64,000 nucleotides of DNA. Origin: Verrucomicrobium spinosum DSM 4136 = JCM 18804 (GTDB taxonomy: Bacteria > Verrucomicrobiota > Verrucomicrobiia > Verrucomicrobiales > Verrucomicrobiaceae). A model generated the notes under the pieces. It saw only the letters and a program-made list of their open reading frames with translations. It was not told the DNA's origin and made no database searches. The DNA lies in contig NZ_ABIZ01000001.1 in NCBI RefSeq assembly GCF_000172155.1, forward strand, positions 496,001 to 560,000. The letters are read 5' to 3'. Position numbers and translations under genes: made by a program. Position 1 is the stretch's first letter. Each line of letters starts with the position of its first letter. Shown here one piece after another: positions 27,601 to 42,737 of this stretch.

Positions 27601-27608
27601 AACTTTCT

Positions 27609-28340
27609 CTACCAGATTTGCTTGATCAAGGCACCGATTCTCGATCGGAGCAACGCCTCCGACTCGGAATCGCCGTTGCAAACTTCAGCCAGTACGAGTG
27701 CAAAGTCCCGGTGTCTCGAAAGCTCGTGAAAGGCTGATGCGATGAAATTTCTCAACCCAAGATCGCTCGCCAAGATTTCGTCATGGAGTCGGGCACGTCG
27801 TCTGACAACTGCCAAAATGTCTCTCAGGTCTTTGGCGTGATAATAATCCTCAACCCCACGATCTCTAAACGCATCCAGCTTGGCTCCAATGAAGGAAGGA
27901 GGATGAGCCAGCCAGATCGCCTTGCCTGAAGGCAACGTCAATCGAAGCGCCCCCTGCCACGCGAGTCGAAACCAGCGATTGTGATTGCCTCCCCAGTCAA
28001 AGTCTGTGGACAGAATGTCCACCTGAATCTTCATCTGAAACCACCATCGGAAAGGAAGAGCCCTTCCTGCGGAAGTCATACCAGAGTCGCGGTCCCGGAC
28101 AAGACCATGACGTGCCAGAGTGTTCTCTACGAACTCCCGGTCTCGGTCACTTACAATCGAGGTCACGACATCCAGGTCTTTGGTTGCAGAAAACCCGTCG
28201 AATGTAAGGGTGTCGGCATACAACGGCACAGCTGCCCCGCCCAGAAAAACCAAACGCAGTCGGCCCTCTTTCTCCATTGCTTCGAAGACCTCGGCAGCTT
28301 CTGAAAGGACCGATGCGATGTTGTCTTGGTCGATGTTCAT
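27609..28340 (-). CDS. Nucleotidyltransferase-fold protein, candidate toxin of a type IV TA-like pair
   Basis: A 243-residue protein with the DNA polymerase beta-like nucleotidyltransferase core: GG at residues 34-35 (FLGGAAVPLY), the metal-binding pair D55 and D57 (TKDLDVV), and a third carboxylate at D108 (VDIL). A later segment, FIGAKLDAFRDRGVEDYYHAKDLRDIL, resembles the post-core helix region of AbiEii-like proteins. Its start overlaps the stop of the upstream winged-helix gene (ATGA), so the two are translationally coupled. It ends 8 bp before the KefF-like start. Toxin function is inference; a housekeeping nucleotidyltransferase role is possible. Confidence 0.7.
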   Translation of the reverse strand: MNIDQDNIASVLSEAAEVFEAMEKEGRLRLVFLGGAAVPLYADTLTFDGFSATKDLDVVTSIVSDRDREFVENTLARHGLVRDRDSGMTSAGRALPFRWWFQMKIQVDILSTDFDWGGNHNRWFRLAWQGALRLTLPSGKAIWLAHPPSFIGAKLDAFRDRGVEDYYHAKDLRDILAVVRRRARLHDEILASDLGLRNFIASAFHELSRHRDFALVLAEVCNGDSESEALLRSRIGALIKQIW

Positions 28341-28861
28341 CGCGTGTGAAGTTTTCGCAGTCTTGACTCTAGCTCGACCATGGCGAGTTCACGTGCTCGG
28401 GGCTCTTGCCCTCGGAGAGAGTCGGTCAATGCCAGCCACTCGTAGAGCTTGGGGTCTGCTTTGGCCGCAAATGGGACAGAGGGGTAGAGCGGGGTAACGG
28501 CGGTGCCCAGAACATCGCTTGCAGCATCCGGCCAAACCAGAGGCATACTGGATGACTCCATTAGCAACTGGTTGGTAAAAGGTTCTGCGGCGTACGAGGT
28601 TGGCATCCCTTTGGCTGGAGCTCCTTTTTCCAAAGGCAGGAGGAGGGGCAAGGCGTGAACTAGCAGAGTCTGAAGGTTTCGAAGAACGAGTGACGGATGT
28701 GACTCCCGAGTTAGAAGACGACATCGTTGTGCCCGTTTCACTGCTGCATGAGTTTCTGAAACGCTCAGGCCCAACGATTTAGCTAGCTCTGCATAGGTAT
28801 TTCCAGCCGGATCCGCGGCAAACTTGAGGGCTAGGAGCGCGTCTTGCGGCTTGAGAAGCAT
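28337..28861 (-). CDS. Winged-helix protein, candidate antitoxin/regulator
   Basis: A 174-residue protein. Residues 1-50 form a winged helix-turn-helix (KPQDALLALKFAADP, then TYAELAKSLGLSVSETHAAVKRAQRCRLL). The C-terminal half has no recognised domain. It is the first gene of a two-gene operon with a nucleotidyltransferase-fold protein, and a palindrome at 28880-28889 lies directly upstream of its start, consistent with autoregulation. The arrangement (DNA-binding protein first, overlapping nucleotidyltransferase second) parallels AbiEi/AbiEii modules, but sequence similarity to AbiEi is not evident. Confidence 0.68.
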   Translation of the reverse strand: MLLKPQDALLALKFAADPAGNTYAELAKSLGLSVSETHAAVKRAQRCRLLTRESHPSLVLRNLQTLLVHALPLLLPLEKGAPAKGMPTSYAAEPFTNQLLMESSSMPLVWPDAASDVLGTAVTPLYPSVPFAAKADPKLYEWLALTDSLRGQEPRARELAMVELESRLRKLHTR

Positions 28862-28879
28862 AGCTGAATAGTATTCGCA

Positions 28880-28889
28880 ATTCGCGAAT
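28880..28889. promoter_or_regulatory. Palindromic candidate operator between divergent island genes
   Basis: The perfect palindrome ATTCGCGAAT, with an additional half-site ATTCGC at 28873-28878, lies in the AT-rich 80-bp gap between the winged-helix gene and the divergent NTPase gene. A TATATT hexamer at 28927-28932 ends 9 bp before the NTPase ATG and could be a -10 box for a nearly leaderless transcript. Confidence 0.4.
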
Positions 28890-28941
28890 CACAAACTATT
28901 TTTGAGCAAGCGTTCGTCCTGCTCGTTATATTCTACTACTC

Positions 28942-31900
28942 ATGCCTGCGTCCAACGAACTCCCCATACCGCGCTATTTCTCTGCCACAGTTGGCAGTAG
29001 CAAGGGGCGAGTTGGGTGGACTCGACTTTGGTCCCCGTTTGGGACGCCCATCAGCCTTGAAAACTTGGGGCAATTGGATGGCAGCCAGCGCGGCGGGTTT
29101 CTGGCCACTCCAGATAGCGAGATCAATCCCAACTGCAGATCCCTGGACGAGCTGAGTCGACAGCATCGTGCACTGATTCTCTGTGGCGCTCCAGGTGCCG
29201 GCAAATCCGTCGAAATCTACGCCTATTGCCAGAGGTTGATAGAAGATGAATCGGTATGCCTGCTCGCCTACGGTGCGGATGCGATCGATGACAGCGGGGC
29301 GTTACGTGAAATTAGTACTGGACATCCTGAATGGGAAAAGGCCCAACAGGAGGGGCGAAAAATCGTATTGGTGATTGATGGTTTCGATCAGATTCGCTTT
29401 CCATCCGGTAAACCATTGGCTGTGCTCTCTCGTTTACTTGGGAGCTGCGATCTAGCAAACGTGAGGTTGATCCTCGGGTGCCGTACTTCCGATTGGGACA
29501 GCTCGCTCGGGGAGTCCCTGTTGGCCCGATGGGGGCAGTCGTTGGGGGAAGGCGTATTTGAGATTTGTCCCCTCCAGCGTAGCGACGTAAGTGAGGCCGC
29601 TGCGTCGATAGGCATAGAGAATCCAAAGGAATTCCTTGATGCCATACAGGAGATGCGAGCGGAGGTGCATGCGCAATGGCCACTAACATTGGAACCGCTC
29701 CTTCATCGGCATGCCAATGGACTTGAATTGTCCGTTTCAGCCAAGGAACTCTACAATGACTCTGTAACCAGATTACTCGACTCGGCGAGGGACGAACAAT
29801 CTGACTCTTTATTGTCGGCGACAACGACCCGCCAGATCGCCCGACGCATCGCTGCTCTTCAGGTTTTCAAGCAAAGTCAGTCGATTCAATTGTCGGTCGA
29901 TCTTCCGAGTCGCGACGAGCTTACATCCAGTGACATCATTGGGCCTGAAGGTGAGCAGATGGAATGGTCAGCCACAACAGGGGCACCATCCGAATTGAAC
30001 CTGCGGCAGATCAAGCATGTAGTTGGAACGGGACTCTTCACGGCACATGGTGTGAAGAACCGCGGATTCGTTCATCAAGCGTATGCGGAATTTCTTGCGG
30101 CAGAGTATGTCAAGGGGTTGAGCGTAACTGCCCTGAAGGAGATTCTTACGGTCCATGTCGATTGGCGGGAAGCTGTTCCTCCGCAACTGACTGAAACCGC
30201 AGCATGGGCTTCTGTGATGAATGAGGAGTGGTTTCAGTGGTTGTTGAGCCACTATCCTCAAATACTCCTCCGTGCAGACGGGACCCAGCTTTCGACCACA
30301 CAAAAGGGTGAGCTGCTGCAACGTTTGTTGGCCAGAGTTTCATCCTACGATGCTCTCCCTTTTCGCGAGATCGACCGTTTGACGCCGTCCTTCGCCTTTC
30401 CTGGGATGGCGTCCCGTCTTTCGGAGGTGATTAGAGATGCCAGCGCGGATTCATCGGCAAGGCGATTTGCCATACAAGTAGCAGAGAGGTGCCGCTTACT
30501 TGAGGTGGAGCCGGCACTATGGGAACTCCTTGAACGGGGGGGGGACGAAACATTGAGGAGGGATGTCTGTCGTGCGCTTCATGTTTTGTTGCCATTGCGC
30601 GACGATCTCGACCCGGACACTCAGGAGAGGCTTGTCCGCCTGGTACGGAAAGAGATGGGCCCCGATGATTTGGACGACCTGAAAGGTCTGGCGCTTGAGC
30701 ATTTGGTGCCGAAGTACCGCGAGGTTTCTGATGTTGCCGAATGGCTCACTCCGCCCGTTTTTGACAACTATACGAGCTCATACATACGGTTTCTTCGAGA
30801 CAAGCTACCTAACATCTTGTCTCGAAGTGATGTCCCGGTATTGCTGTCTAGGCTTGCAGCAAATCGTTGGTGTTCTTCAAGGTCAGGGCACTGGAAGCTA
30901 GCGAAGGCAGTTGTTTTCGAGGCGATGAACCAGTTGCATGAAGTTGCAACCAGGCAAGCTATGATCGCCCTGATCGAAAGCTGTGTTCTGCATTCCATCA
31001 GACTGCCTTTCTCCGATTCTTCATGGCAAGAAGAGGAGGAGAGCCCTGACGAACAGTGGCAAATGCGAGTTGACCTTCTTCACCTATATTTGAATGAAGG
31101 TCCAGGTTCTGTCGAGGATGTGTGGAGTGTGAAGGAGATGCTGGGGCTTCGTCATGTTCCTCTGAGGCTGCTCCTTGATGAGTTTGAGGCGGCACCAATG
31201 ACAAGTCGTCCGCACTGGGCGGAGTGCATTCGGCTTTCAATCTTCAATGAAGAAGATCGAAAGTCGGTCTTGCCACGCCTCCTGGAAGTGTACGTGAGCA
31301 ATTCAGAGCTTCGAGATGCACTGTTGCCATGTCGCCCGGGTCTGAATATTCATGAAACGCTTGTAGCTTATCGCGAAGAGCAATCGGCCAAGCAGAAGGA
31401 ATTTTCCCGAGAAACTGTGGATTCCGCTACAGACGAAATCACCGCGGATCGAATAAGGCTGGCCATAGGTGAGCTAAGTGACGGTGATTTCCGTCATATG
31501 CTTGACGTGCTGCACTGGGTCCACGGATCTGATGCGGGGCTGTTTGAAGACGCTGTGAACTCACAACGCTGGGACGTCCTGCTCAATGATGAGCAACGGC
31601 TCGTGCGTGATGCAGCCAGAACATGGCTTGCGGCTTCAACCGATCCAAAAGGAAAAGATAGTGTGTGGCGAAACACAGATGACAGCTATGCGGCATGTCT
31701 ATCTTTCGGGCTGCTGGCAGACGAGTTGGAAGGAGATAGTCACCTCGCACGACATGCGGCGCTAAATTGGACTCGTGCTTTCATCCTGCAGCCAAGGAAC
31801 AGTACGCCTGGAGATGTGAAGATTGCAGCGACTTTGCTTAAGTTCAATTCCAGCGGGGTGGTGAGTGCGCTATCAGAACGCCTTGAGATCGATAGCAATT

Positions 31901-33198
31901 TGAAAAGCAATGCCAGCGCATTGCGATACTTTGAGCATTGTTGGAGTGGTGAGCTTTCGGCAACAGTAGTTTCCTTTCTCAATCACCCTGACATCTATCC
32001 AGGAACCTATAAGTCGGCCTGCCGGTTTTTGGTGGCCGTGGATTTTGTCGCTGCAAAATCCATGTTGGCCTCGCAGCTTCTCAGAATTCCCTTGCAGCAG
32101 GGGGGCGAGCTATCTGCATTGCAAAGAGCAGTCATTTTCTGTGCTGCCTTTCGCACCCGTGGGCAGCTTTGGGGGCAGGCGGTCTTGCATTTTCAATCGT
32201 TGGAAAATGCTCGCACGATTTTTGAGGAAAATGCTGATGCGTTCGGCTCGTGGCATATGCGCAGGGATACAAAGAATGAACTGCTCCAGGGGCTAGGAGT
32301 GGACGAGTTGGAGCAGCTTTATATTTTGTTGGCGACGATTTCACCGGAATCTGAATCGGGAATCAACAAGCGATTCCTAACTGGTGGAGATACGTTGGGG
32401 GAAGTGCGTGCTCTTGTTGAGCGTACATACGCGGCATTGCCGGCTCCGGAGGGTAGGTCCAAAAAAGTCATGGCTCAATTGTCGCAATCACTGCGGGAAT
32501 CATTCGCGTTCAGCAAAGGTTCAGCGTTGATTTCTAATGCGGAATCCGAATTCAAGCCTGTTCCCCCAGCGACTTTGCTCAAACTGGTCCGTCTCTCTGA
32601 CGCCAGACTGATCCGGTGTGAGGAAGATCTCGTGGACTTCTGCGTCGAGCAGATCAAACGCTTTGAGCATGATTCAATTGAGCTCCGACAAGATTACTTT
32701 TGGAATAAAAATGGCACGGAGAGGCATGAAACCGATCTTTCGAAGGCGCTGACTGGGTGGTTCCAACGAGGTCGTGAGCTGATCGCAAATTGCGAAGCGC
32801 AAGCGGTTCACATCACCGGGGACCGCACTGACATCAAAGTGGAACTCCCGCACATCAGACCTGTGATCATCGAAGTCAAAAAGGCGCACAATCCTAGCGT
32901 TGAAACTGACATCCAGACGCAGCTTGTTGACCGCTACTTGCCTCAACACCAAACATCCTTCGGGCTCTACGTCGTTGGATGGTTTGGTCACAAGTCCAGT
33001 TTCCTGGGTGGTGAAACCCCAAAACAGGACGAAAAGGTTCTTCAAAAGTTGGTGAAGAAACTAAAGGGCCCGGCCGACCTCCAAGTTCGGGCGATGGTCT
33101 TGGATTGCCGGAGAAGGCTGTCTGCTCCCAAAGATTCAAAGGGTCGCATGACTGCTTCAAAGAAGGGGAGATCCAGGAATGCCGCCCCGAAGGGGTGA
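28942..33198 (+). CDS. Large STAND/NACHT-type NTPase with C-terminal PD-(D/E)XK-like nuclease
   Basis: A 1,418-residue protein. After a short N-terminal region (1-70), a P-loop NTPase has Walker A GAPGAGKS at 82-89, Walker B IVLVIDGFD at 141-149 (D146, D149) and the arginine-bearing strand LILGCRTSDW around R181, the pattern of NACHT/STAND ATPases. Residues ~330-1200 are Leu-rich and helical, suggesting HEAT/ARM-like sensor repeats. Near the C-terminus, D1297, then E1311-V-K1313 and Q1327-L-x4-L form a PD-(D/E)XK nuclease pattern, followed by a basic tail. The gene has lower G+C than its surroundings and is divergent from the winged-helix/nucleotidyltransferase pair. A defence role (ligand-triggered DNA cleavage) is inferred from architecture. 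Confidence 0.75.
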   Translation: MPASNELPIPRYFSATVGSSKGRVGWTRLWSPFGTPISLENLGQLDGSQRGGFLATPDSEINPNCRSLDELSRQHRALILCGAPGAGKSVEIYAYCQRLIEDESVCLLAYGADAIDDSGALREISTGHPEWEKAQQEGRKIVLVIDGFDQIRFPSGKPLAVLSRLLGSCDLANVRLILGCRTSDWDSSLGESLLARWGQSLGEGVFEICPLQRSDVSEAAASIGIENPKEFLDAIQEMRAEVHAQWPLTLEPLLHRHANGLELSVSAKELYNDSVTRLLDSARDEQSDSLLSATTTRQIARRIAALQVFKQSQSIQLSVDLPSRDELTSSDIIGPEGEQMEWSATTGAPSELNLRQIKHVVGTGLFTAHGVKNRGFVHQAYAEFLAAEYVKGLSVTALKEILTVHVDWREAVPPQLTETAAWASVMNEEWFQWLLSHYPQILLRADGTQLSTTQKGELLQRLLARVSSYDALPFREIDRLTPSFAFPGMASRLSEVIRDASADSSARRFAIQVAERCRLLEVEPALWELLERGGDETLRRDVCRALHVLLPLRDDLDPDTQERLVRLVRKEMGPDDLDDLKGLALEHLVPKYREVSDVAEWLTPPVFDNYTSSYIRFLRDKLPNILSRSDVPVLLSRLAANRWCSSRSGHWKLAKAVVFEAMNQLHEVATRQAMIALIESCVLHSIRLPFSDSSWQEEEESPDEQWQMRVDLLHLYLNEGPGSVEDVWSVKEMLGLRHVPLRLLLDEFEAAPMTSRPHWAECIRLSIFNEEDRKSVLPRLLEVYVSNSELRDALLPCRPGLNIHETLVAYREEQSAKQKEFSRETVDSATDEITADRIRLAIGELSDGDFRHMLDVLHWVHGSDAGLFEDAVNSQRWDVLLNDEQRLVRDAARTWLAASTDPKGKDSVWRNTDDSYAACLSFGLLADELEGDSHLARHAALNWTRAFILQPRNSTPGDVKIAATLLKFNSSGVVSALSERLEIDSNLKSNASALRYFEHCWSGELSATVVSFLNHPDIYPGTYKSACRFLVAVDFVAAKSMLASQLLRIPLQQGGELSALQRAVIFCAAFRTRGQLWGQAVLHFQSLENARTIFEENADAFGSWHMRRDTKNELLQGLGVDELEQLYILLATISPESESGINKRFLTGGDTLGEVRALVERTYAALPAPEGRSKKVMAQLSQSLRESFAFSKGSALISNAESEFKPVPPATLLKLVRLSDARLIRCEEDLVDFCVEQIKRFEHDSIELRQDYFWNKNGTERHETDLSKALTGWFQRGRELIANCEAQAVHITGDRTDIKVELPHIRPVIIEVKKAHNPSVETDIQTQLVDRYLPQHQTSFGLYVVGWFGHKSSFLGGETPKQDEKVLQKLVKKLKGPADLQVRAMVLDCRRRLSAPKDSKGRMTASKKGRSRNAAPKG

Positions 33199-33225
33199 AT
33201 TCGATCAGGGATCGCACCCGCAGCT

Positions 33226-33633
33226 TCACTCCTCACATCCATTCTCCAGATCCTTCAACTGGTGATCCAGTGCCCCCACGGACATCTGGATTTCAATCAA
33301 AGAGAGGACAAGGGAGGTGATCATGGTCAGCAGACTGAGTCCAAAGAGGATCTTGCCTGCGGTGTCATAGCCAAAGAAGAGGAGGAGCATGCATACCGTG
33401 CAAATCAGAATGCTGAGGACGCCGAAGAACTGCATGTCACGGATGAGCTTGATCCGGTAACGCAGGTTGTGGATCTGCTTGAGGTAGATGGGGTCTGCAG
33501 ACGTCTTGTAATTGGCGTGCAGAGCCCGCACCACGCTGGCGAGGCCGTGGAACCGGTTGGTGTAGGCCAGCAGGAGGAGGGAGATGGCCGGGAAGATGAG
33601 GACGGGGGTGGTGAGTGTCATAACACGTGGCAT
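33226..33633 (-). CDS. DUF2721 membrane protein
   Basis: A 135-residue protein with three hydrophobic segments. The N-terminus TTPVLIFPAISLLLLAYTNRF is characteristic of DUF2721, whose function is unknown. The gene is convergent with the NTPase gene and returns to the high-G+C background, so it marks the right border of the accessory island. A second in-frame ATG 12 bp downstream (33621) could also serve as start. Confidence 0.82.
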   Translation of the reverse strand: MPRVMTLTTPVLIFPAISLLLLAYTNRFHGLASVVRALHANYKTSADPIYLKQIHNLRYRIKLIRDMQFFGVLSILICTVCMLLLFFGYDTAGKILFGLSLLTMITSLVLSLIEIQMSVGALDHQLKDLENGCEE

Positions 33634-36758: not shown

Positions 36759-38912
36759 TCAGATGGCAGTATAGGAAAGACAGCGGATCTCGTCCATTGT
36801 CGTGTTGCCAGCAAGGAACTGCAACAGCCCCTCTTGATAAAGGGTCCGGAAGCCATGAGTAAGAGCGGCCGTCCTCAAACTTGAGAGGGGGGCTGCGGCT
36901 TCAATGAGATCACGAATTTCATCGTTGATCTCACAGAGCTCCATGAGGGCGAGCCGGCCGCTGTAGCCTGTGCCGTGACACTCATCACAGCCCACACTCT
37001 CGTACACCGGCTGGGTGAGGGCGTGGGTGATCGCACCTTGCTTGAAGAGATGCTCCTGTATCTCACGCGAGGCGGCCACCGGCCTTTTGCAGTAGCCGCA
37101 AAGTTTCCGCACCAGACGTTGGGCCTGGCTGAGCGCCAGGGAATCTGCGAGGAGGTACTTCTCAACGCCCATGGAAAGCAGACGGGAAACGGCTCTCAGG
37201 GAGTCGTTGGCATGCAGGGTGGTCAGCACCAGGTGACCCGTGAGGGAGGCGTTCACCGCTGCCTGGGCGGTCTCAGTGTCACGAGATTCCCCGATCAGAA
37301 TGATGTCAGGGTCGGCCCGCAGGAGGGCTCGCAGGCCGTTGGCAAAATCCAGCCCGTACACAGGGTTGGTCTGTGTCTGGTTGATGCCCTCCACCTCGTA
37401 TTCGATGGGGTCCTCAATGGTCTGAATGTTCACGCTCTCCTCGTTAACGCTGTTGAGCAGCGCGTAGAGGGTGGTCGTTTTACCTGAACCTGTGGGGCCG
37501 GTCACCAGCACCAGGCCCTGGTCCCGGCGCATCACGCGGGTGAAGATGTCCTGCTGGCGCTGGCTGAGGTTGAAGTCGCTGAGGTGGCGCACGCCGTCCT
37601 GCTTGTCCAGAAAGCGCATGATCACCTTCTGAAACTCCCGGCGCGTCGGCACGGCGGCCACGCGAACGTCCAGCCTGCGCCGGCCGATGCGCATGGCAAA
37701 GCGGCCATCCTGCGCCTCCTGGCGCGTCTGGCTCATGTTGGAGTAGTTCTTCACCAGTGCGACGAACCGCGAGAGCAGCTCTTCTGGTGCCGTCAGGATG
37801 ACCTTCAGATTGCCGTCGATGCGCGCCCGGAAGCGTGTCACGTTGTGAAACTTCTCAATGTGGAGGTCGCTGGCGCGGCACCGGATCGAGGTAAACAGGG
37901 CCCAGTGCATCAGTTCCTCGGCAGAGTGGTTGGGGTTCTGGGGATTCACCCGCCCCATGTCCTCCGCGCTGATCTCCACCACATCACTTTCCTCCCGCTC
38001 AGCCAGGTGAGTTTCCTCGACCTTCGCCACCGAGTTGGGATCGAAGTTGGCGGCGGCGCGTGCGATGGCCTCCCTGATGGCTGCTGGATCCGCCAGCACA
38101 GGGATGATCTTGCCCGCCTCGTTGCCCAGAGAGAGCCATTCGTCCTCGAAGGCATAGTTGTCCGGTGTCTCGCTGAGCAGATAGACGCAATGCCGGCCCG
38201 CATACAGTGGATAGACATTGAAGCGCTCCAGCAGATGGTGCGGGAAGAGCTGCTGTCGCGGGGCCTCCTGGGCGTTGTACACCTGTGCTTTCCCATCCGT
38301 GGTGAGGTAGCGCAGGGCCACCCCCAGATTGCGTTGCAGTCCGTTGAAGTCGGCCACACTCAGGACGGTCTTCTTCTCCCGCAAAGCAGAATGAAAGCCG
38401 CGCAACCGGGTCGCGTCCGAGGGCTCGTAGGGGTAGTGTTTTAGAAGCCACTCAAATGCAACATCCAGCCCCACTTCGCTCAAACGGGGCACTTCCAGCT
38501 TCTCCAGGGGATTTTCCTGCGGGATGGGATTCTGCTGGCAACGGCTGGCAAAGTCCTGTCTCGTCTTCTGGTACTGATCCTTGGAGATCAGCACCCGCAC
38601 TGCCAGAGCGTGTGGCACCCCCCACAGGTCTGTGGCCTTCGGATTGAAGTGCGCCATGACCAGCAGCGGGCCCAGGGTGGCCACCGGCAGCCAGGGATCG
38701 GCCGTGTAAGGCATCCGCCCGAGCTTCCTCAGAAGGCGCTCGGCCTCAGGCGGGCAGCTTTCCCGCAGGAGATTGACCGGCACCAGCCCATGCTGGAGGG
38801 CCACCCCTTCTATCGTCATCACCAGCGACTCTTTCGCCCCTATCGTGTCTGGGCCCGGGGCGGGTGCCCCGGTGGCGAAGCGGAGGGATGCAGGTGAGGA
38901 AACAACAGACAT
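36759..38912 (-). CDS. GspE/PilB-family assembly ATPase
   Basis: A 717-residue hexameric ATPase that powers pilus or pseudopilus assembly at the inner membrane. An N-terminal ~300-residue GspE-N-like region precedes the motor: Walker A GPTGSGKT at 472-479, Asp box IQTIEDPIEYEVEG, Walker B LRADPDIILIGESRD and His box TGHLVLTTLHAND. Walker B ends IGESRD instead of the usual GEIRD. Two CxxC pairs (CGYC and CDEC) form the zinc element. The ATG at 38912 is chosen because it lies between genes; a longer frame would run into the prepilin gene. Confidence 0.92.
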   Translation of the reverse strand: MSVVSSPASLRFATGAPAPGPDTIGAKESLVMTIEGVALQHGLVPVNLLRESCPPEAERLLRKLGRMPYTADPWLPVATLGPLLVMAHFNPKATDLWGVPHALAVRVLISKDQYQKTRQDFASRCQQNPIPQENPLEKLEVPRLSEVGLDVAFEWLLKHYPYEPSDATRLRGFHSALREKKTVLSVADFNGLQRNLGVALRYLTTDGKAQVYNAQEAPRQQLFPHHLLERFNVYPLYAGRHCVYLLSETPDNYAFEDEWLSLGNEAGKIIPVLADPAAIREAIARAAANFDPNSVAKVEETHLAEREESDVVEISAEDMGRVNPQNPNHSAEELMHWALFTSIRCRASDLHIEKFHNVTRFRARIDGNLKVILTAPEELLSRFVALVKNYSNMSQTRQEAQDGRFAMRIGRRRLDVRVAAVPTRREFQKVIMRFLDKQDGVRHLSDFNLSQRQQDIFTRVMRRDQGLVLVTGPTGSGKTTTLYALLNSVNEESVNIQTIEDPIEYEVEGINQTQTNPVYGLDFANGLRALLRADPDIILIGESRDTETAQAAVNASLTGHLVLTTLHANDSLRAVSRLLSMGVEKYLLADSLALSQAQRLVRKLCGYCKRPVAASREIQEHLFKQGAITHALTQPVYESVGCDECHGTGYSGRLALMELCEINDEIRDLIEAAAPLSSLRTAALTHGFRTLYQEGLLQFLAGNTTMDEIRCLSYTAI

Positions 38913-38943
38913 GGTGCGGGTTCTGGGACGGAGAAGGGGCCGG

Positions 38944-39447
38944 CTACTTTCCTGCCATCGTAAAGTTGGGAGGAAAGCTGAACGGCGTGCCGAGGTCAGA
39001 GCCGTCAAATGCCACTTTCAGGCCGGTGCCGGACGCGCCAGGAGGAAGAAGTTTGTACAGGGTGCCAGTCCACATCAAGCGGTAGTCATCCATGCTGCTG
39101 GAGATGCCGGGATTCCAATCATTTCTCATGTAGGGCGACCCGGGCTTGGGATTCTCAGGGTCGCGGTACTGCATGGTGCGCAGAATGAGCATTTCATCCT
39201 GACCGGAGGGGGCCACGCCGGTGAAGAGCAGTTCGTAGTTGCTCATGTTGAACCGGTGCACGGCTGTATTCAGCGTCTCCAGCGCGTTCTTCGCAACCGC
39301 AGCATGCGCACTGGTGGTCATGTCGCTGAATCTGGGGATCGCAATCGCAGCAATCACTGAGATCACGGCAATGACGACGATGATCTCCACGATGGAGATG
39401 CCCGCCGGCTTCCGGTGCGAGCCTGTCATGGCATGGGTTCCCTTCAT
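38944..39447 (-). CDS. Prepilin-type protein 1 (type III signal peptide)
   Basis: A 167-residue pseudopilin candidate. The prepilin peptidase site is G|ISIVEIIVVIAVISVIAAI, with Glu at +5 and a long hydrophobic helix; the leader is about 20 residues. The globular part has no recognised domain. It is one of four consecutive short prepilin genes between the PilC- and PilB-type genes and is probably a minor pseudopilin. Confidence 0.88.
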   Translation of the reverse strand: MKGTHAMTGSHRKPAGISIVEIIVVIAVISVIAAIAIPRFSDMTTSAHAAVAKNALETLNTAVHRFNMSNYELLFTGVAPSGQDEMLILRTMQYRDPENPKPGSPYMRNDWNPGISSSMDDYRLMWTGTLYKLLPPGASGTGLKVAFDGSDLGTPFSFPPNFTMAGK

Positions 39448-39465
39448 GGCTTTTTGGGCTGCCGG

Positions 39466-39873
39466 TCAATAGCTTATCGTCGTGGAGCCTTGTTTCAAGG
39501 TGACCTTTGCCAGAGGGTCAATGGTGCGGAAGGTGATGCTGTACCCGTTGGGAACGAAGTCGGTCAGGTTCGTTTCTGAGAAGGAGATGTAAGGGGCGAT
39601 CTTGGCGTACTTGGCCTGGTCAGTGGTGGCGGCGGTCCAGTCTGAGACGGCTTGGGTGCGGCCGCGCACCTGGATGAACGTGGCCATGCCCATGTTGATG
39701 GCCTCGGCGCGGGCGATGGCGACATTGCGCTCACTGTCACTGCGCATCTTGATCAAGTTCGGGATCGCCAGAAAGGCGATGATGCCGATGATGGCGACTG
39801 CCGCCAGCATCTCTACAAGAGAAAAAGCCGCTCGCATGGAACTGCGGCACCGGGTGGAAAAACTGCTGTGCAT
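39466..39873 (-). CDS. Prepilin-type protein 2
   Basis: A 135-residue pseudopilin candidate from the ATG at 39873. The site is A|FSLVEMLAAVAIIGIIAFLAI, with Ala instead of Gly before the cleavage point and Glu at +5. An internal ATG at 39837 would give a shorter leader and cannot be excluded; a longer frame to 40050 would overlap the preceding gene by 160 bp. The mature protein ends in TTISY. Confidence 0.85.
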   Translation of the reverse strand: MHSSFSTRCRSSMRAAFSLVEMLAAVAIIGIIAFLAIPNLIKMRSDSERNVAIARAEAINMGMATFIQVRGRTQAVSDWTAATTDQAKYAKIAPYISFSETNLTDFVPNGYSITFRTIDPLAKVTLKQGSTTISY

Positions 39874-39886
39874 AAGCGGGATTCTG

Positions 39887-40357
39887 TTACTCCGCATTGA
39901 GTTGGACCTGCGGATAAGAGCCAGATGCCCAAGTCGGAAGGGTGAGGAATTGCTTCGTCGCGGTGAGCGCTTCGCTCTTGATCTTGTCCGAATTGGTCGT
40001 GCTGCTGAAGAAGTGGTTCTTTGTGGGATCGTCAAGGTAGCCGGAAACAAGGTTCAACCGGGCCAGGGAGGTGGTGCGGCTGTTGTAGTCGGTGCGTATC
40101 TCCTCCACCGTCCGGAGTTTCCCTGCACCTGTGGTGGCGTTGATGACGTTCACCCGGTTCGTGTCCCCATTGACCCAGGCGTTGACGGCATTTTGCACTG
40201 CTGCCTGCTGCTGCCGGGCGATCATCCGGCTGGCGTCGGTCGTGGCGCTGGAGAAGGCGCTGATCAACACTCCCGCCATGATGGAAAGGATGGCAATGGT
40301 CACCAACGCTTCGACCAGGGTGAAGGCCCGTGGGTGCCGGCAGGTTGATGGATTCAT
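39887..40357 (-). CDS. Prepilin-type protein 3
   Basis: A 156-residue pseudopilin candidate. Type III signal peptide site A|FTLVEALVTIAILSIMAGV, again with Ala at -1 and Glu at +5. The mature part is Ser/Thr/Asn-rich with a predicted helical spine (SRMIARQQQAAVQNAVNAWV). Spacing to the next gene is 13 bp, consistent with one operon. Confidence 0.87.
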   Translation of the reverse strand: MNPSTCRHPRAFTLVEALVTIAILSIMAGVLISAFSSATTDASRMIARQQQAAVQNAVNAWVNGDTNRVNVINATTGAGKLRTVEEIRTDYNSRTTSLARLNLVSGYLDDPTKNHFFSSTTNSDKIKSEALTATKQFLTLPTWASGSYPQVQLNAE

Positions 40358-40451
40358 GAGAAGAGCAGGGGGTTTGGAATGCGGGCGGGCCCAATGGCCT
40401 GGCCAAAGGGCCCGCGCTGGGATTCAAGCCGGCGCTGCAGCTCGGCGACCG

Positions 40452-40838
40452 TTACTTTTTGTCCTTGTCGTAGTAGATTCCGGAATCGTTGGTGGAGATG
40501 TACTTCAGAGCTCCGGTTTTTTCGGCATCACCCAGGCCAGGAACTTGGAAGAGCTTGCCATCAAATGCTCCAGTGCCTTTTTTACCAGCGACGACGTCGT
40601 CGAACGCTGCTTCGGCGGAAGTGGTGTTCCAAGTCACACCGGCGGCCTGCCCCGCTTGAAAGACGGAAACAACGTTCTGGGCGTTGCGCTGGTCCTTGCC
40701 CTTGGCCGCGGCGTCATTGATGCCGCTGATGCTGGGGATGGCGATGGCGGCGATCACACCGATGACGGCGATCACGACCAGCATTTCAATAAGGCTGAAG
40801 CCTTGGGCGATGATGTTTTTACGTGCTGTGTTTTTCAT
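40452..40838 (-). CDS. Prepilin-type protein 4, probable major (pseudo)pilin
   Basis: A 128-residue protein with the most canonical type IV pilin N-terminus of the locus: G|FSLIEMLVVIAVIGVIAAIAI. The ATG at 40838 gives a 13-residue basic leader. It is compact and Lys/Asp/Gly-rich at the C-terminus. It has its own upstream AT-rich region of about 200 bp with a promoter candidate, which fits high expression and a major-subunit role, though abundance is inference. Confidence 0.87.
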   Translation of the reverse strand: MKNTARKNIIAQGFSLIEMLVVIAVIGVIAAIAIPSISGINDAAAKGKDQRNAQNVVSVFQAGQAAGVTWNTTSAEAAFDDVVAGKKGTGAFDGKLFQVPGLGDAEKTGALKYISTNDSGIYYDKDKK

Positions 40839-40932
40839 GGGTAGTGTTGTCTGAGTACTAGTTTTTATGGTTACTGATGGGAGCTGTCTCAAAAAGAGGA
40901 GCTGCGCTCGCTCATTTATGATAACAGTGGGG

Positions 40933-40960
40933 AATCTATCATTTTTTAGATTAGCGTCAA
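40933..40960 (-). promoter_or_regulatory. Sigma70-like promoter candidate for the probable major pilin
   Basis: On the minus strand TTGACG (40955-40960) and TAGATT (40933-40938) are separated by 16 bp in a strikingly AT-rich gap between the PilC-type gene and the pilin gene. A transcript from here would carry a leader of roughly 90 bases before the ATG at 40838. Confidence 0.42.
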
Positions 40961-41042
40961 CTCAAAATTATCGTCATTATGGCCAATCTGAGAAGGGTGA
41001 TTCGTTTTCAGGTGAAATTTACGTTTCTTCGCATGTTGATTC

Positions 41043-42272
41043 TCATTTTCGACCGGGGAGGATGGCGTCACCCAGGCTGAAGATGGGCGCGTAAATCGCG
41101 TAAACGAGAAAACCCACCATAAGACCCAGAAACATGATCGTGATGGGTTCGATGATCTTGTCCACCTGGTTGGCCAGTCCATCGAGCTCGTCCTCGTAGT
41201 CGTCCGCGATTTCGTTGAGCATTTCTGTGCCGGCACCCGTTTCGGATGCCAGCTCGATCAAACCGCAGATGGACCTTCCGTCTTCACCCAGCCAGTGGGA
41301 CTCGATGAGGAAAGACTCATGCATGGTCCGCCCGACGTTGATGTGGCTGGCCAGGCGTTCAAAGAACTCCTTGTATTGCCAGTGCCAGGAGGCTTCGGCA
41401 GTGATGGCCAGGGCGCTGGAGAGTCGCACATTAGCCTCTAGCAGCATGGCAAGGCACCGGAAACTCACTGCAGAAGCCGACTTCCGCACCAGTGTGGAAA
41501 TGACAGGCAACTTGAGAAACAACGACTGGGCGGAACGCGTGCTGGAGATGCGTCCCCAGTTCTTGAAGAAAAGGATCATGCCCACGATGGGGATGGCCAC
41601 CGTCCAGGGTTGGTGGACCAGCGTGTTGGAAACGAACAGCAGCGCCTTGGTCCCCATCGGCAAGGCCACATTGAGGGAGGTGTAGAGCTTCTGCATGGCC
41701 GGTACCAGGGTGAAGCTCATGATGATCACCACGGTCACGGCCAGCACGATGACGATCGCAGGGTAAATGAGCCCCGCTTTCAGCTTCTTGATGATGCGGG
41801 CAGTCTTCTTTTGGGCAGTGCCAATGCGCCGGCAGACGGCGGAGAGCTGGCCGGCTTCTTCGCCAGCGATGATCAGGCTGAGCAGTTCCTTTGGGAAAAC
41901 GGAGGGATGCTTGGCAATGGCATCGCTGAATTTCTCTCCAATGGAGAGGTCATAGACCATCTCTGCAATGACGCCGCGGTACTTGGGAGATTTGACGCGG
42001 TTGGCCTGGAGCTGCAAGCTCTTGATCATGCCGATGTTCCGCTCCAGGCAGCGGGCCAGGCCATTGAAGAACACGACGCGGTCCTCCAAGTTCTCCTTGG
42101 GCAGGGTCATTTTGTGCACCGTCTCATCCAGGCCCACGATGTCCTCGATGGTGGCGGTCTCGTTTCCGGACATGCCGGAGCCAATGATGGCCTTTTCATG
42201 CGTGTCCGTCTCCACGTACGACTCGTGCCTGCCGCCGGTGTGGATGTTTGTGATGAGGACTTTCTTGAGCAT
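41043..42272 (-). CDS. GspF/PilC-family inner-membrane platform protein
   Basis: A 409-residue polytopic protein that couples the assembly ATPase to pilus growth. Two GspF repeats are visible (about 75-195 and 275-400), each followed by hydrophobic helices (AGLIYPAIVIVLAVTVVIIM; PITIMFLGLMVGFLVYAIYA). The conserved PxLLxxLIxxGEEAGxL-type segment is present as FPKELLSLIIAGEEAGQL. It separates the two prepilin groups in the block. Confidence 0.93.
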   Translation of the reverse strand: MLKKVLITNIHTGGRHESYVETDTHEKAIIGSGMSGNETATIEDIVGLDETVHKMTLPKENLEDRVVFFNGLARCLERNIGMIKSLQLQANRVKSPKYRGVIAEMVYDLSIGEKFSDAIAKHPSVFPKELLSLIIAGEEAGQLSAVCRRIGTAQKKTARIIKKLKAGLIYPAIVIVLAVTVVIIMSFTLVPAMQKLYTSLNVALPMGTKALLFVSNTLVHQPWTVAIPIVGMILFFKNWGRISSTRSAQSLFLKLPVISTLVRKSASAVSFRCLAMLLEANVRLSSALAITAEASWHWQYKEFFERLASHINVGRTMHESFLIESHWLGEDGRSICGLIELASETGAGTEMLNEIADDYEDELDGLANQVDKIIEPITIMFLGLMVGFLVYAIYAPIFSLGDAILPGRK

Positions 42273-42296
42273 GACAAAAAGAATGAGCCTGATGAA

Positions 42297-42737
42297 CTAG
42301 CGGATGCTGGGGCGGTACACCTCTGAGGAAAGAGTCTGGTGTGCGGTGGAGACTGGATTGCGAATGGTCACGGTGCAGGTGACGTCCTCCAGCGTGCCCA
42401 TGCTGTTGGCCAGGGTGGTGGTGCCTTCCCCGGTGAAGCTCACCTGGATGCCCGGAGCGGTGCCAGAGGGGACGATGGCGGACTCCAGCATGCGGTTGTT
42501 CGTGACATGGGGCAGCACGGCGAGCACCTCGGAGGGGGTCAGTCCCAGCTGCCAGAGACGGGAGGCATTGTCATGGTAGTTGATCGCCACGGCTGTGACT
42601 TCTGCCGTCTCCACCTGGAGGTTCATCGTGCCTGCAAGTGCCACCGCACCGCCGATGACCACCCCCACCATGGCGGAGGCCACGAGCACTTCGAGGATGG
42701 TGTATCCGCCAGGGCGGCTCTGGAAAGATGGTTTCAT
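42297..42737 (-). CDS. Prepilin-type protein 5
   Basis: A 146-residue pseudopilin candidate with site G|YTILEVLVASAMVGVVIGGAV (Glu at +5). Its start overlaps the stop of the preceding large protein by four bases (ATGA), indicating translational coupling. The hydrophobic helix contains several Gly/Ala, as in minor pseudopilins of the GspI/PilV type. Confidence 0.85.
   Translation of the reverse strand: MKPSFQSRPGGYTILEVLVASAMVGVVIGGAVALAGTMNLQVETAEVTAVAINYHDNASRLWQLGLTPSEVLAVLPHVTNNRMLESAIVPSGTAPGIQVSFTGEGTTTLANSMGTLEDVTCTVTIRNPVSTAHQTLSSEVYRPSIR

What the first reader, a model, noticed from the sequence alone, without database searches (positions are those of the whole stretch)
28942..33198. 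STAND/NACHT-type NTPase fused to a C-terminal PD-(D/E)XK-like nuclease
Seen: Walker A (82-89), Walker B (141-149), a long Leu-rich helical middle and D1297 / E1311-x-K1313 / Q1327-L near the C-terminus. Known: antiviral STAND proteins (Avs) couple a ligand-sensing repeat region and a NACHT-like ATPase to an effector, usually placed at the N-terminus. Here the nuclease-like part is C-terminal, after the putative sensor repeats, and the gene sits in a low-G+C island. Inference: a phage-sensing suicide nuclease with a reversed domain order.
Basis: partly seen in the sequence, partly recalled or inferred. Interest (0 to 1): 0.75.

Follow-up and report, generated by a model that had tools for sequence, protein, structure and literature searches.

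The report
NLR-like immune protein with C-terminal nuclease
This bacterial gene encodes a large immune-receptor-like protein whose predicted DNA-cutting domain sits at its tail rather than its head; it belongs to a widespread family related to two proteins already listed as antiphage, and in its own lineage it travels with a small regulator/enzyme gene pair that carries a conserved DNA switch.

Summary
In detail: 28942-33198 (+) is one intact 1418-aa ORF with the stated motifs at the stated residues. Predicted structure gives an NLR-type NACHT module (residues 13-489, best match NLRC4/NLRP3, Z 18), a HEAT-like solenoid and a C-terminal PD-(D/E)XK core. About 60 relatives at 20-30% identity, from many phyla and archaea, keep this order; E1263, D1297, E1311, K1313, Q1327 and L1328 are (nearly) invariant. 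The reversed order is not unique: NCBI's antiphage families EruA and HyoA share it, but the window protein is far below their cut-offs.

New here is the context. The gene lies on a 5.6-kb insertion absent from one congener. The insertion also carries a divergent pair, PDC-M21A (winged helix) and PDC-M21B (nucleotidyltransferase). The three genes recur together in five other Verrucomicrobiales loci with unrelated flanks. The palindrome ATTCGCGAATTGCGAAT between them also lies upstream of most M21A genes elsewhere, so M21A probably controls the nuclease receptor.

Best reading: an abortive-infection NLR-like nuclease receptor under M21A control. Architecture is well supported; defence function and nuclease activity are inferred. 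The paper behind EruA/HyoA was not in the library.

The parts
28942..33198 (+). NACHT / HEAT-like solenoid / C-terminal PD-(D/E)XK protein, 1418 aa
   Evidence: Intact ORF; sub-cut-off relative of NCBIfam antiphage EruA (6.6e-37) and HyoA (7.9e-35); AF2 models
28978..30408 (+). NLR-type NACHT module (NBD and following helical/winged-helix regions), residues 13-489
   Evidence: VIA-align Z 18.0, 391 residues aligned, rmsd 4.6, to NAIP5-NLRC4 6b5b_B
29185..29208 (+). Walker A GAPGAGKS, residues 82-89
   Evidence: Sequence; G87 invariant, K88 in 20 of 22
29362..29391 (+). Walker B IVLVIDGFDQ, residues 141-150 (Q150 instead of E)
30409..32511 (+). Alpha-solenoid (HEAT/ARM-like), putative sensor, residues 490-1190
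   Evidence: AF2 model; profile matches to alphaRep HEAT-like designs; sub-threshold HEAT_2
32704..33111 (+). PD-(D/E)XK-type nuclease core, residues about 1255-1390; E1263, D1297, E1311-x-K1313, Q1327
   Evidence: AF2 pLDDT 84.7; VIA matches Can2, PaqCI, BspD6I, BglII, McrC; invariant residues
28337..28861 (-). M21A: winged-helix protein, 174 aa (PADLOC PDC-M21A), likely repressor
   Evidence: PADLOC 1.8e-30; weak MarR_2; operator
27609..28340 (-). M21B: nucleotidyltransferase-like protein, 243 aa (PADLOC PDC-M21B), overlapping M21A by 4 bases
   Evidence: PADLOC 1.3e-36; GG...KDxD...D residues conserved in six members
28873..28889 (.). Candidate M21A operator; on the minus strand ATTCGCGAATTGCGAAT
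   Evidence: Only exact copy in the 8.2-Mb genome; core TTCGCGAA upstream of M21A in 20 of 23 loci, background 0.009 per 170 bases
27604..33227 (.). Insertion carrying all three genes
   Evidence: Homology to congener G003 stops at 27603 and resumes at 33228, with no island between; in G001 the site holds only an M21 remnant

Best explanation
A bacterial NLR-related immune receptor with its effector at the C-terminus. The HEAT-like solenoid recognises a phage component or a phage-caused change. The NACHT module then switches nucleotide state and oligomerises. This brings C-terminal PD-(D/E)XK domains together and activates them to cut DNA, causing abortive infection. The divergent M21A protein binds the palindrome in the shared promoter region and limits expression of its own operon and of the receptor. 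M21B, an AbiEii-like nucleotidyltransferase, is a co-inherited partner of unknown role (toxin, antitoxin or modifier). Shown here: domain order, folds (predicted), invariant active-site residues, insertion boundaries, three-gene linkage, operator conservation. Inferred: phage trigger, oligomerisation, DNA cleavage, cell death, regulation by M21A.
For: NLR-type NACHT fold, Z 18 to NLRC4, with Avs4 as best Foldseek match. PD-(D/E)XK core with all catalytic residues invariant across a superfamily of 16-30% identity that includes EruA and HyoA members. Co-linear match of relative G111 to EruA positions 16-1317 of 1318, a family NCBI names as antiphage. Variable insertion site, empty in G003 and decayed in G001. 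PADLOC defence-candidate pair alongside. The same three genes in G032, G034, G040, G063 and G121 with no other convincingly shared flanking genes. All carriers fall in one supported clade. M21A operator lies between the divergent genes.
Against: No functional data. The nuclease fold match is moderate (Z 7.7; Foldseek gave no hit with E below 0.001), so it rests on the motif plus the order of secondary structure. No Pfam model hits the nuclease domain. Q150 replaces the usual Walker B glutamate in this copy, so ATPase may be weakened. M21AB also occurs alone in many genomes and plasmids, so it is not dedicated to this receptor. The sister group of the clade, and G111 inside it, lack M21AB. The publication behind EruA/HyoA could not be found, so 'antiphage' rests on the NCBIfam name. 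Part of the relative set was fetched with a pattern containing IEVKG, which biases E1311/K1313 in that subset; one search uses a set fetched without it.
Confidence: 0.6

Rival explanations
1. The receptor is a stand-alone defence gene like EruA/HyoA, working as above. M21AB is an independent AbiE-like toxin-antitoxin pair that only stabilises the same mobile segment and has no role in immunity.
For: M21AB alone on many plasmids and genomes; the EruA and HyoA loci examined show no M21 pair; G001 keeps M21A without the receptor.
Against: Tight divergent spacing with the operator in the shared intergenic region in all six cassettes, and retention of the trio across different chromosomal sites and deep divergence.
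Confidence: 0.25
2. The C-terminal PD-(D/E)XK domain acts mainly as a recogniser of invading DNA, and cuts phage DNA directly without killing the host, as a restriction-like system.
For: The C-terminal position is where STAND sensors usually sit (PMC12169576); cleavage of invading DNA is common for REase folds (general knowledge).
Against: A long solenoid typical of sensors is already present between the NACHT and the nuclease, and no other effector domain precedes the NACHT (only about 60 residues).
Confidence: 0.1
3. A regulatory STAND NTPase with a nuclease-like domain that is not connected with defence.
For: No phage tests; Q150 substitution in this copy.
Against: Patchy distribution, variable insertion site, invariant catalytic residues, relatedness to antiphage-named families.
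Confidence: 0.05

Closest known systems
NCBIfam NF058535 antiphage_EruA (NACHT domain-containing antiphage protein EruA)
   Same: Co-linear architecture, NACHT then long middle region then C-terminal domain with the same E/D/ExK/QL residues; match 6.6e-37
   Different: 127 bits against an equivalog cut-off of 1000; about 16% identity; no M21 homologue near the EruA copy examined
NCBIfam NF058534 antiphage_HyoA
   Same: NACHT plus C-terminal ExK domain; a true HyoA member occurs in same-genus genome G001
   Different: 120 bits against cut-off 1200; separate clade
bNACHT proteins (e.g. bNACHT25, clade 6)
   Same: NACHT module coupled to a PD-(D/E)XK effector (PMC12169576)
   Different: Nuclease is N-terminal there and the C-terminus is the sensor; here the order is reversed
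Avs (AVAST) STAND systems
   Same: Large STAND ATPase with helical sensor; Avs4 is the best Foldseek hit
   Different: Effectors are N-terminal; no PADLOC Avs model matched
PADLOC candidate PDC-M21 / AbiE-type pairs
   Same: Neighbour pair matches PDC-M21A and M21B; plasmid relatives are annotated AbiEii/AbiGii
   Different: Here fixed divergently to a NACHT-nuclease receptor; window M21B does not reach Pfam AbiEii
RptR-regulated defence island
   Same: Small repressor with a palindromic operator controlling an adjacent defence locus (PMC12255303)
   Different: Different protein (79 aa, four helices) and site (TAGCTA); controls a type I restriction system

Membership tests
STAND/NACHT NTPase | Walker A, Walker B and downstream arginine motif | tested here: met
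   82-89, 141-149, R181; conserved in relatives. Q150 is atypical
STAND/NACHT NTPase | NLR-type NACHT fold | tested here: met
   Predicted model: Z 18.0 to 6b5b_B over residues 13-489
STAND/NACHT NTPase | Pfam NACHT gathering score | tested here: not met
   16.6 bits against 26.7; divergent sequence, so this is a matter of sensitivity
PD-(D/E)XK nuclease | Core alpha-beta-beta-beta-alpha-beta with D...ExK in place | tested here: met
   AF2 order H74-87, E98-100, E109-113, E116-125, H131-146, E151-158, with D at 108, E/K at 122/124, Q at 138 of the model; top VIA hits mostly REase-fold nucleases, Z up to 7.7
PD-(D/E)XK nuclease | Metal-dependent nuclease activity | not testable with these tools
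   Needs biochemistry
EruA (NF058535) | Score over curated equivalog cut-off | tested here: not met
   127.2 against 1000 bits
HyoA (NF058534) | Score over curated equivalog cut-off | tested here: not met
   119.8 against 1200 bits
EruA/HyoA superfamily | Co-linear homology including C-terminal domain | tested here: met
   The window gene matches the EruA model at positions 65-604 and 1120-1317; invariant residues shared
Canonical bNACHT / Avs | N-terminal effector, C-terminal sensor | tested here: not met
   Only about 60 residues precede the NTPase; nuclease-like domain at the C-terminus
Avs | Binding of phage terminase or portal | not testable with these tools
   No experiment
PDC-M21 pair (PADLOC) | M21A and M21B adjacent | tested here: met
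   1.8e-30 and 1.3e-36, overlapping genes
AbiE type IV TA | AbiEii Pfam match | tested here: not met
   M21B matches only NTP_transf_8, E 0.019, below cut-off

The most novel reading that the evidence does not exclude
The three genes form one immune system: an M21A/M21B repressor-nucleotidyltransferase module is wired to an NLR-like receptor with a C-terminal nuclease, so that phage-caused loss of M21A, or modification by M21B, sets or triggers the receptor. This would be a toxin-antitoxin-type module serving as the control arm of a bacterial NLR.
Probability: 0.28. Interest if true: 0.75.

Novelty: new variant of a known kind. Interest (0 to 1): 0.52.

Why it matters
A 2025 study of bNACHT25 describes the effector-NACHT-sensor order (N- to C-terminus) as shared by all STAND NTPases (PMC12169576). 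This family, present in many bacterial phyla and in archaea, places an apparently intact nuclease active site on the other end, so it asks how NLR oligomerisation can drive an effector on the far side of the sensor. The conserved operator makes the regulation of an NLR-like receptor directly testable in a short list of experiments.

Tried and rejected
EruA/HyoA papers: not found in the library; the one paper with EruA in its title concerns an unrelated E. coli regulator. Viral and phage collections: no relative. Single-protein scan of genome contigs with the window protein: nothing, as its relatives are at most about 31% identical. Alignment A2 was too divergent for pattern scans. No solved structure by sequence for the whole protein or convincingly for the nuclease profile. 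Promoter and terminator scan of 28700-29100: nothing above chance. Idea that M21AB is dedicated to the receptor: rejected, as the pair occurs alone widely. Idea that other M21AB pairs also face large effectors: no consistent pattern. Neighbour survey of the wider family: defence genes occur (BrxL, type I methyltransferase, AbiEii, PbeA) but each in only one or two of 141 neighbours, with no control set, so no enrichment is claimed.

Full report
Observation. The ORF at 28942-33198 (+) is intact and encodes 1418 residues. The gene is 52.8% G+C in a window that is mostly 60-65%. Pfam recognises only sub-threshold STAND/NACHT models. NCBIfam recognises the antiphage families EruA and HyoA strongly but far below their equivalog cut-offs. 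The genome has 8,220,857 bases; with the kinship pattern this suggests Verrucomicrobium spinosum, which is an inference.

Relatives. Whole-protein searches found relatives in 11 of 143 nearby genomes and 8 of 388 genomes of the phylum, counting the window's own genome. A pattern scan seeded with three relatives found 67 loci in cyanobacteria, Nitrospirota, Planctomycetota, Chloroflexota, Bacillota, Bacteroidota and others, plus a few archaeal MAGs. Most intact ones have about 1400 residues and align end to end. Identity to the window is about 15-31%. No phage or viral contig has one.

Active sites. In an alignment of relatives found without any motif pattern, including EruA, HyoA and an Akkermansia-like relative (genus inferred), E1263, D1297, E1311, K1313, Q1327 and L1328 are invariant in all 19 sequences covering the region. 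D146, D149 and R181 are also invariant, and position 88 is K (20) or R (2). In the larger set the same holds almost without exception, but part of that set was fetched with an IEVKG pattern and is biased there. Position 150, the Walker B glutamate, is Q only in the window.

Structure. AlphaFold2 of residues 1190-1418 with 58 sequences gave pLDDT 84.7 and the order helix, three strands, helix, strand, helix, strand, with the acidic residues and lysine on the expected strands. Second-look structural matches are mostly REase-fold nucleases (Can2, PaqCI, BspD6I, BglII, McrC, FokI) at Z 5.8-7.7; Foldseek alone was weak. Small GTPases appear lower in the same list at about Z 5, so the fold call rests on fold and motif together. 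Residues 1-1189 gave pLDDT 77.7. Residues 13-489 match active NLRC4 and NLRP3 inflammasome structures (Z 18 to 16.6), and Avs4 is the best Foldseek hit. The rest is a solenoid; the family profile touches HEAT-like alphaRep designs.

Is it EruA or HyoA? Not by score. A tree puts both in a separate group from the 51 other sequences (quick tree, long branches, so placement is tentative). They share the architecture, and a relative of the window aligns along nearly the whole EruA model (G111, positions 16-1317 of 1318). So this is a large third branch of the same superfamily. Why NCBI calls EruA and HyoA antiphage could not be read here.

Insertion site. Congener G003 has the flanking flavodoxin and DUF2721 genes next to each other, so 27604-33227 was inserted here or lost there. 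In G001 the same site holds M21A with a shortened M21B and no receptor.

The linked pair. Immediately divergent lie M21A and M21B, which match PADLOC candidate PDC-M21. The same pair lies divergently next to the receptor in G032, G034, G040, G063 and G121. Comparing those loci and the window, only these three genes are shared convincingly; the flanks differ. The carriers form one clade with the window in the receptor tree (97% SH-aLRT), in which only G111 lacks the pair. The M21AB tree is compatible with a single association (67/84, not significant). M21B keeps the GG, KDxD and third aspartate positions of nucleotidyltransferases. M21AB is also found alone: 19 of 388 genomes of the phylum have an M21B match, and about 100 plasmids have a relative.

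The operator. The sequence upstream of M21A contains TTCGCGAA within 170 bases in 20 of 23 loci, including pairs without a receptor in Deinococcus, cyanobacteria and Betaproteobacteria. The background is 0.009 per 170 bases. The exact 17-mer occurs once in the window's 8.2-Mb genome. In the receptor cassettes it lies in the shared divergent intergenic region, its core starting 17-58 bases before the receptor homology in five of them and ending about 53 bases before the start codon in the window. This is what an autorepressor site that also controls the receptor would look like, but binding is untested.

Verdict. Architecture: well supported. Defence role: likely. Reversed domain order: real, but shared with already named antiphage families. 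Regulatory coupling to M21A: a new, specific and testable proposal.

Noticed in passing
window 29389-29391 (residue 150): Walker B ends DGFDQ; all 21 aligned relatives have E at this place, so this copy may have altered ATPase.
   Followed up: partly
L031, L067, L068, L119: Cyanobacterial copies appear to lie next to DNA polymerase III delta (holA) and gamma/tau (dnaX) genes, a recurrent neighbourhood, in one annotated case on a conjugative plasmid.
   Followed up: no
L095 and L096: An identical 792-residue version lacking roughly profile positions 154-777 occurs in a Desulfobacteraceae MAG and in an Argoarchaeum MAG: recent transfer or mis-binning.
   Followed up: no
L032 near 7968: The Bradyrhizobium plasmid copy has TTCGCGAA 30 bases upstream of the receptor although no M21A homologue was detected there.
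   Followed up: partly
L025 and L042 (HyoA-like): Two HyoA-like members have arginine in place of the Walker A lysine.
   Followed up: no
L135 (G001): Same site in the congener keeps M21A and a truncated M21B but no receptor, suggesting decay of the cassette or a receptor-free form.
   Followed up: partly
L164, L165: Some plasmid M21AB pairs are followed by a third gene annotated as a serine/threonine or PP2C-type phosphatase.
   Followed up: no
window 36759-42737: Type II secretion / type IV pilus-like gene set (T2SSE, T2SSF, N_methyl proteins) on the minus strand.
   Followed up: no
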